Below, piece after piece: positions 62,983 to 63,111 of a stretch of DNA of 64,000 nucleotides. The stretch covers positions 248,001 to 312,000 of the forward strand of contig CANMIS010000004.1 of assembly GCA_947498065.1 (NCBI GenBank), in the 5' to 3' direction. Origin of the DNA: an uncultured Erythrobacter sp. GTDB lineage: Bacteria; Pseudomonadota; Alphaproteobacteria; Sphingomonadales; Sphingomonadaceae. A model generated the notes under the pieces. That model did no database searches. It saw nothing but the letters and a program-made list of their open reading frames with translations, and was not told the origin of the DNA. Position 1 is the first letter of the stretch, and each line of letters starts with the position of its first letter. The position numbers and the translations under genes were made by a program.

Positions 62983-63111
62983 CTAATCCATCGCCATCAT
63001 GATCATTCCGTCCATCATCAAGGTGGCGCTTCCACCGGTCAGATTTCTTACAGAACCGTATGCCGTCAGGCGCGGCGGCGTGTATTTCGCTTTCTTGGCT
63101 TTCTGTTTCAT
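62983..63111 (-). CDS. Lasso peptide precursor (leader plus predicted core GSATLMMDGMIMMAMD)
   Basis: MKQKAKKAKYTPPRLTAYGSVRNLTGGSATLMMDGMIMMAMD; leader matches Y-x2-P-x-L-x3-G-x5-T, Thr at penultimate leader position, core Gly1 and Asp8; located next to the Asn-synthase-like cyclase. Confidence 0.85.
   Translation of the reverse strand: MKQKAKKAKYTPPRLTAYGSVRNLTGGSATLMMDGMIMMAMD

What the first reader, a model, noticed from the sequence alone, without database searches (positions are those of the whole stretch)
62983..63111. Unannotated 42-aa lasso precursor with predicted 16-aa Met-rich core GSATLMMDGMIMMAMD
Seen: the supplied track shows it only inside a longer 76-aa ORF; the convincing start is ATG 63111. 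The leader YTPPRLTAYGSVRNLTG fits YxxPxLxxxGx5T with Thr at the -2 position. Core Gly1 and Asp8 would give an 8-residue macrolactam ring with tail GMIMMAMD. Six of 16 core residues are Met, there is no Arg or Lys, and the C-terminus is Asp. A Met-rich threaded peptide suggests metal (Cu/Ag) binding or redox sensitivity, which is speculative.
Basis: partly seen in the sequence, partly recalled or inferred. Interest (0 to 1): 0.88.

Follow-up and report, generated by a model that had tools for sequence, protein, structure and literature searches.

The report
Met-tailed lasso peptide with dedicated methyltransferase
The window encodes the precursor of a small knotted (lasso) peptide whose methionine-rich tail occurs in relatives almost only together with one particular methyltransferase gene, which suggests that bacteria chemically decorate these methionines in a way not described before.

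Summary
Window 62983-63111(-) encodes a 42-aa lasso-peptide precursor with core GSATLMMD-GMIMMAMD. It has a curated leader hit, a Y(-17)/T(-2) register, Gly1/Asp8, and purifying selection against a close relative. A complete cluster surrounds it and runs past the window end: B2, oxygenase X, cyclase C, precursor A, methyltransferase M, kinase K, RRE B1, transporter D, NTP_transf_5 N.

The main result is comparative. The same locus occurs with and without M. With M, 53 of 55 distinct cores have Met in the tail; without M, 4 of 23. Leader-matched: 35/36 and 2/16, both exceptions in genomes carrying M elsewhere. The kinase tree needs at least four changes of M, and the M-less lineages have Arg/Lys and no Met in the tail. 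M has the arginine-methyltransferase fold, but its arginine-binding glutamates and THW loop are gone. Best explanation: M modifies the Met tail, perhaps to S-methylmethionine sulfonium (inferred, untested).

Many orthologous precursors are fused behind the Met tail to a Peptidase_S74 domain with the self-cleavage residues; no held paper links this to lasso peptides. Verdict: new variant of a known kind.

The parts
62983..63111 (-). A: 42-aa lasso precursor ORF (with stop)
   Evidence: NF033521 E 3.6e-5; dN/dS 0.03/0.70
63034..63084 (-). leader recognition region YTPPRLTAYGSVRNLTG, Y(-17) to G(-1), T at -2
   Evidence: same register in orthologs
63010..63033 (-). predicted macrolactam ring GSATLMMD (Gly1-Asp8); Ser2 candidate phosphorylation site
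   Evidence: BsfK precedent PMC10368454
62986..63009 (-). Met-rich tail GMIMMAMD
63119..63122 (-). AAGG, putative Shine-Dalgarno 7 nt before ATG 63111
   Evidence: sequence
61795..62922 (-). M: PRMT-fold methyltransferase, double-Glu and THW motifs replaced; extra C-terminal helical domain
60959..61798 (-). K: HPr-kinase-like peptide kinase, catalytic His95/Lys116/Asp134 invariant
60673..60948 (-). B1: PqqD-like RRE (leader binding)
58983..60686 (+). D: ABC transporter/permease fusion
57898..59034 (+). N: NTP_transf_5 protein (same class as PsmN/BsfN by description; function in this cluster unknown)
   Evidence: PMC10368454, PMC9266682
63159..64000 (-). C: asparagine-synthetase-like lasso cyclase, 3' part; the full gene continues outside the window (L002:1660-3552), followed outside by X (L002:3596-4528 -) and B2 (L002:4541-5071 +)

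Best explanation
The ORF is the precursor of a lasso peptide. B1 binds the leader, B2 cuts after TG (T at -2), and C closes Gly1 onto Asp8, giving an 8-residue ring threaded by the tail GMIMMAMD (inferred from family rules). K probably phosphorylates Ser2 in the ring, N may extend the phosphate, and X is a 2-oxoglutarate oxygenase of unknown target (all inferred). The distinctive step is the PRMT-fold methyltransferase M acting on the Met-bearing tail. The coupling of M to Met is shown; that M acts on the tail is inferred from it. The chemistry I think most likely is S-methylation of one or more Met to sulfonium, which would place a fixed positive charge where the M-less relatives have Arg or Lys. 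My estimates: M acts on the Met tail about 0.6; specifically S-methylation about 0.35.
For: Complete cluster. Leader and register. Met in tail: M+ 53/55 vs M- 4/23 distinct cores (Fisher 2.4e-12); leader-matched 35/36 vs 2/16 (9.7e-10), both exceptions in genomes with M elsewhere; Arg/Lys in tail 11/36 vs 15/16 (4e-5). Met is by far the most enriched tail residue (27% vs 2%). The kinase tree needs at least 4 changes of M; all M-less lineages on it lack tail Met. In two genomes an A-M gene pair with a Met tail sits apart from an M-less main cluster whose own precursor has an Arg tail (L028/L095, L032/L094). MxM spacing exceeds composition (29 vs 17.4 shuffled). M is a PRMT fold (PDB profile E 7e-38; AF2 pLDDT 89.5 and Foldseek PRMT6 E 1e-24), but the PRMT double-Glu positions are Asp104 and Tyr113, invariant in 37/37, and THW is lost. 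This argues against Arg as substrate, as do the cores, most of which lack tail Arg.
Against: No product mass or enzyme assay exists. Co-occurrence does not show the chemistry. Only four independent contrasts are available (sign test p 0.125). One M+ locus (L125) has no tail Met, and 11/36 leader-matched M+ tails still carry Arg or Lys. Enzymatic S-methylation of Met within a peptide has, to my knowledge, no natural RiPP precedent. The M+ and M- sets came partly from different searches.
Confidence: 0.6

Rival explanations
1. M is a C-terminal carboxyl methyltransferase (functional analogue of StspM/LasF), and Met residues are only part of its recognition or of the tail's shape.
For: StspM methylates lasso C-termini with broad specificity (PMC8498205, PMC9266682). 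C-terminal residues of M+ cores are very variable, which such an enzyme could accept.
Against: It does not explain why Met, and not the C-terminal residue, follows M. In S74-fused precursors there is no free core C-terminus until the domain cuts. M is a PRMT fold with its own invariant active-site set; StspM was modelled on a mitomycin 7-O-methyltransferase.
Confidence: 0.2
2. The Met-rich tail binds Cu(I)/Ag(I), and M has an unrelated role.
For: MxM spacing in 29/55 M+ tails, above composition; Met motifs bind Cu(I) in general knowledge.
Against: No copper gene was recognised in the cluster or its flanks; the identifiable neighbours are polysaccharide genes. It does not predict that Met is missing wherever M is missing.
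Confidence: 0.12
3. Met tails and M are co-inherited by lineage without direct action of M on the tail (for example M acts on Asp8 or Ser2, and the tails drifted together with it).
For: Few independent changes (4); the sample is phylogenetically structured.
Against: A-M cassettes apart from M-less clusters in the same genome; coupling holds in Sphingomonadales, Burkholderiales, Gammaproteobacteria and Cyanobium.
Confidence: 0.15
4. Cleavage leaves the preceding Gly, giving a 9-residue ring.
For: GG at the boundary.
Against: Breaks Y(-17)/T(-2) and would require 10-residue rings in orthologs with D9.
Confidence: 0.04

Closest known systems
bsf lasso cluster of Bradymonas sediminis (BsfA/B1/B2/C/D/K/N; PMC10368454)
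   Same: Same gene set B1, B2, C, D, kinase and nucleotidyltransferase homolog; Asp8 ring; C-terminal Asp; Ser near the start of the ring (BsfA Ser3).
   Different: BsfA has Ile(-2); the published gene set has no methyltransferase and no oxygenase.
Paeninodin / SyanA / pseudomycoidin phosphorylated lasso peptides (PMC8498205, PMC9266682)
   Same: HPr-kinase-like tailoring enzyme; nucleotidyltransferase homolog in pseudomycoidin.
   Different: They phosphorylate a C-terminal Ser, absent here.
Lassomycin / StspM C-terminal methylated lasso peptides; lihuanodin (PIMT, aspartimide)
   Same: Lasso peptides with a co-encoded SAM methyltransferase.
   Different: M here is a PRMT fold; its presence follows tail Met rather than Asp or the C-terminus.
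Canucin A / CanE
   Same: Possible 2-oxoglutarate oxygenase tailoring; C-terminal Asp in the window core.
   Different: C-terminal Asp is not conserved among X-bearing relatives (Asn, Ile, Phe and others); only the fold class of X was compared.
Protein arginine methyltransferases (PRMT1/3/6)
   Same: Fold and SAM motifs (PDB profile E 7e-38; Foldseek TM to target up to 0.81).
   Different: Double-Glu loop and THW motif replaced; extra C-terminal domain; RiPP context.
Peptidase S74 / intramolecular chaperone autoprocessing domains (phage tailspikes, MYRF)
   Same: Relatives of this precursor carry it with the Ser and Lys(+5) pair.
   Different: The window precursor itself has none; fusion to a lasso precursor was not found in the held literature.

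Membership tests
Lasso peptide (RiPP) | Leader motif YxxPxL with T at -2 | tested here: met
   NF033521 above cut-off
Lasso peptide (RiPP) | Gly1 (or small residue) and Asp/Glu at 7-9 | tested here: met
   Gly1/Asp8; orthologs D8 or D9
Lasso peptide (RiPP) | B1 RRE, B2 peptidase, asparagine-synthetase cyclase in the cluster | tested here: met
   B2 NF033537 E 5.7e-18; C Asn_synthase E 9e-39; B1 PqqD E 1.3e-17
Lasso peptide (RiPP) | Threaded topology of the product | not testable with these tools
   needs MS/NMR of the product
Protein arginine methyltransferase (for M) | PRMT fold | tested here: met
Protein arginine methyltransferase (for M) | Double-Glu loop and THW motif | tested here: not met
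   Glu to Asp104, Glu to Tyr113, THW lost; Asp104, Tyr113 and Arg250 invariant 37/37
C-terminal-Ser phosphorylated lasso (paeninodin type) | C-terminal Ser | tested here: not met
   core ends in Asp
Ring-Ser phosphorylated lasso (BsfA type) | Kinase with catalytic His/Lys/Asp | tested here: met
Ring-Ser phosphorylated lasso (BsfA type) | Ser/Thr at core position 2 or 3 | tested here: met
   Ser2 here; 49/55 M+ cores
CanE-type hydroxylated lasso | 2-oxoglutarate oxygenase with HxD...H | tested here: met
   AF2 92.5, Foldseek to 2OG oxygenases, H180/D182/H252 invariant
CanE-type hydroxylated lasso | Conserved C-terminal Asp substrate | tested here: not met
   C-terminus varies among X-bearing clusters
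Metal-chelating RiPP (Cu/Ag) | Copper-related genes nearby | tested here: not met
   annotated neighbours are lasso and polysaccharide genes; regulation and binding not tested
S74-fused lasso precursor | C-terminal Peptidase_S74 domain | tested here: not met
   absent in the window ORF; present in orthologs L033, L034, L036 and others

The most novel reading that the evidence does not exclude
A PRMT-fold RiPP enzyme S-methylates methionines in the tail of lasso peptides, giving permanently cationic sulfonium residues that take the place of Arg/Lys. In a large part of the same precursor family the core C-terminus is released by a fused self-cleaving phage-tailspike-type (S74) chaperone domain.
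Probability: 0.3. Interest if true: 0.88.

Novelty: new variant of a known kind. Interest (0 to 1): 0.66.

Why it matters
Known lasso tailoring includes carboxyl methylation, aspartimide formation, phosphorylation, hydroxylation, acetylation and a few others; the lasso reviews I searched (PMC8498205, PMC9266682, PMC13352647) gave no PRMT-fold enzyme and no modification of Met. A methyltransferase gene whose presence predicts Met in the substrate is a directly testable lead to a new peptide modification. The S74 fusions, annotated in databases as tail fiber domain proteins, are a large set of lasso precursors that name-based mining may miss (501 homologs at E <= 1e-3), and they suggest a self-cleaving C-terminal follower in a class normally described with a leader only.

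Tried and rejected
Direct homolog search with the 42-aa precursor found only itself, so I went through the enzyme M instead. A PqqD-like RRE fused to the C-terminus of M was considered: hhalign against B1 gave probability 16 and Pfam only 3 of 20 weak hits, so the domain stays unassigned. Sequence search of X against PDB gave nothing useful; the fold search placed it. C-terminal Asp hydroxylation as in canucin was considered and lowered because the closest relative L106 ends in Asn and other X-bearing cores end in other residues. A halogenase role for X (top fold hits include HalA/HalD/BesD) was set aside because the Asp of HxD is kept; that halogenases lack this Asp is from my own knowledge. 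Phylogenetically independent testing of M against tail Met was possible for only four pairs. Class-level sampling added eight M-less precursors; two have tail Met but none has MxM.

Full report
What is there. Window 62983-63111 on the minus strand reads MKQKAKKAKYTPPRLTAYGSVRNLTGGSATLMMDGMIMMAMD. The leader passes the curated cut-off of NCBIfam NF033521. Counting from Tyr(-17), with Pro(-14), Leu(-12) and Thr(-2), the core is GSATLMMDGMIMMAMD with Gly1 and Asp8. A close relative cluster (L106, uncultured Erythrobacter, M 83% identical) has MKQQAKKAKYTPPRLTAYGSVRNLTGGSATMMMDGMIMMAMN, with 11 synonymous and 3 non-synonymous codon differences, dN 0.03 and dS 0.70. It is a real gene under purifying selection.

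The cluster. The window ends inside the cyclase gene. The rest was fetched from the genome (L002). In order: N (57898-59034 +), D (58983-60686 +), B1 (60673-60948 -), K (60959-61798 -), M (61795-62922 -), A, then C, X and B2, with C running out of the window. B2 is a lasso_biosyn_B2 transglutaminase-like peptidase (E 5.7e-18) and C an asparagine-synthetase-like cyclase. All core lasso functions are present. The cluster sits between polysaccharide genes: an O-antigen-ligase-like gene (WZY) and a TPR gene on one side, glycosyltransferase and flippase-like genes on the other. The WZY/TPR side is syntenic in most relatives.

Kinase and phosphorylation. K keeps His95, Lys116 and Asp134 in all 64 aligned kinases. 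The closest published relative system, bsf of Bradymonas, has the same A/B1/B2/C/D/K/N set; its kinase phosphorylates Ser3 of a precursor that also ends in Asp (PMC10368454). Here 49 of 55 M-linked cores have Ser or Thr at position 2 or 3, so a ring Ser is the likely site. Inferred.

M and the Met tail. I searched M in 401 genomes of the order and in species genomes, and collected precursors near it. Independently, the leader HMM was run over the order set, which also finds M-less clusters. The same WZY-linked locus exists in both states. With M: GSATLMMDGMIMMAMD, GSGTLMMDGTITMVRI, GSAGPNGDVMGTFMAMP, AMTGMGADMMAMLV, GSGGAMMDGMLMMSLPGGMMNMGMGNMGMGMGFF and others. Without M: GSGTRFRDGAVADSRF, GSSGDLGDGNVAKRGPK, GSSGTIRDGGRSRRS, GSTGTQNDGGGVRARTQGGGGFG. 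Counts of distinct cores with Met in the tail: 53/55 against 4/23; among similar leaders 35/36 against 2/16. Both leader-matched exceptions (L087, L100) are second loci in genomes that carry M elsewhere. Met is 27% of residues in M+ tails and 2% in leader-matched M- tails. On a kinase tree M changes at least four times on well-supported branches, and every M-less lineage on it lacks tail Met. That is only four independent events (sign test 0.125), so the Fisher values overstate independence. In G282 and G397 the main cluster has no M and an Arg-tail precursor, while a separate two-gene A-M cassette has a Met-tail precursor. The M-linked set includes Sphingomonadales, Burkholderiales, Competibacter/Contendobacter, Silicimonas and a Cyanobium genome.

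What M may do. A profile of M matches PRMTs in the PDB at E 7e-38. The AlphaFold model (pLDDT 89.5) matches PRMT6 at E 1e-24 and PRMT3 with TM 0.81 normalised to the target. In the alignment to PRMTs the loop SEWMGYFLLYES becomes CDHVGYFGFDYG, so the two arginine-holding glutamates are Asp and Tyr, and the THW loop is gone; Asp104, His105, Asp112, Tyr113, Asn240 and Arg250 are invariant in 37 sequences. The roles of the double-Glu and THW motifs in PRMTs are established knowledge that I did not re-test. I take this as evidence against Arg as substrate. The simplest reading of the coupling is that Met is the substrate. S-methylation would give a sulfonium, and the observation that M-less tails carry Arg/Lys (15/16) while most M+ tails do not (11/36 do) fits a charge replacement. 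This step is inference; carboxyl methylation is the main rival.

X. The gene outside the window has no Pfam or NCBIfam hit, but its model (pLDDT 92.5) matches 2-oxoglutarate oxygenases, and H180-x-D182 and H252 are invariant. It was detected in 21 of 46 M+ loci and 0 of 13 M- loci (loci, with some genomes counted twice). Its target is unknown.

S74 fusions. In L033, L034 and L036 the ortholog of this precursor continues after the Met tail into a domain that passes Pfam's cut-off for Peptidase_S74, starting exactly at SDPRAKEN. The Ser and the Lys five residues later match the catalytic pair described for MYRF and endosialidases (PMC3742443). A database search found 501 homologs; of the 120 listed, 118 have the leader, a core of 14-22 residues and the Ser/Lys pair, and 104 of these have Met in the tail. 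NCBI calls named ones tail fiber domain-containing protein. If the domain cuts as in tailspikes, it defines the core C-terminus (for example GSLGTAGDGGVMNMLM). No held paper joins lasso peptide with S74, S-methylmethionine or arginine methyltransferase tailoring; three lasso reviews were searched for methyltransferases. The library is incomplete, so work outside it may exist.

Metal binding. MxM is more frequent than composition gives (29 vs 17.4), so a metal role is not excluded, but no copper gene was recognised in the annotated neighbourhood and the Met content follows M.

Verdict. The finding is a genuine lasso precursor. The claim of interest shifts from metal binding to a methyltransferase-coupled Met tail and to a precursor family partly equipped with a probably self-cleaving follower.

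Noticed in passing
L033:10939-, L034:9157, L036:9061, L077:7859-, L116, L119, L128, L130, L131, L133, L135, L137, L139, L144, L145, L151, L152: Lasso precursors fused at the C-terminus to a Peptidase_S74 chaperone/autoprocessing domain; 501 database homologs, named ones annotated as tail fiber domain proteins.
   Followed up: partly
L002:5164-7561 and equivalents in L025-L045, L077-L096: The lasso cluster has conserved synteny with an O-antigen-ligase-like gene, a TPR gene and a small signal-peptide-like protein of a polysaccharide locus, across genera and even in the divergent cluster type.
   Followed up: partly
L097, L098, L099, L101, L102: Stand-alone lasso precursors with the same leader and no cluster machinery nearby, in genomes that have a main cluster elsewhere; possibly matured in trans.
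   Followed up: no
L028, L032: Two-gene A-M cassettes (Met-tail precursor plus methyltransferase) without C, K or B1 nearby.
   Followed up: partly
L107:7818: Core with 12 Met among 34 residues (GSGGAMMDGMLMMSLPGGMMNMGMGNMGMGMGFF).
   Followed up: no
L035, L037, L040 (Novosphingobium type): Cores that would start with Ala1 instead of Gly1, with Asp8.
   Followed up: no
L087:7899-: Core GSSFTMLDQFCGGSGNGFRDCFRPRM with two Cys, possible disulfide-bearing lasso.
   Followed up: no
window 61798-62034 (-): C-terminal ~75 residues of M form an extra helical, winged-helix-like domain; weak PqqD-like signal only.
   Followed up: partly
L118:7257 and 7741; L141; L137: Clusters with two or three precursors.
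   Followed up: no
L043, L044, L045, L104: Divergent cluster type with a distant M homolog (about 23-27% identity), Ser1/Ala1 and Glu8 rings, and a weaker Met association.
   Followed up: partly
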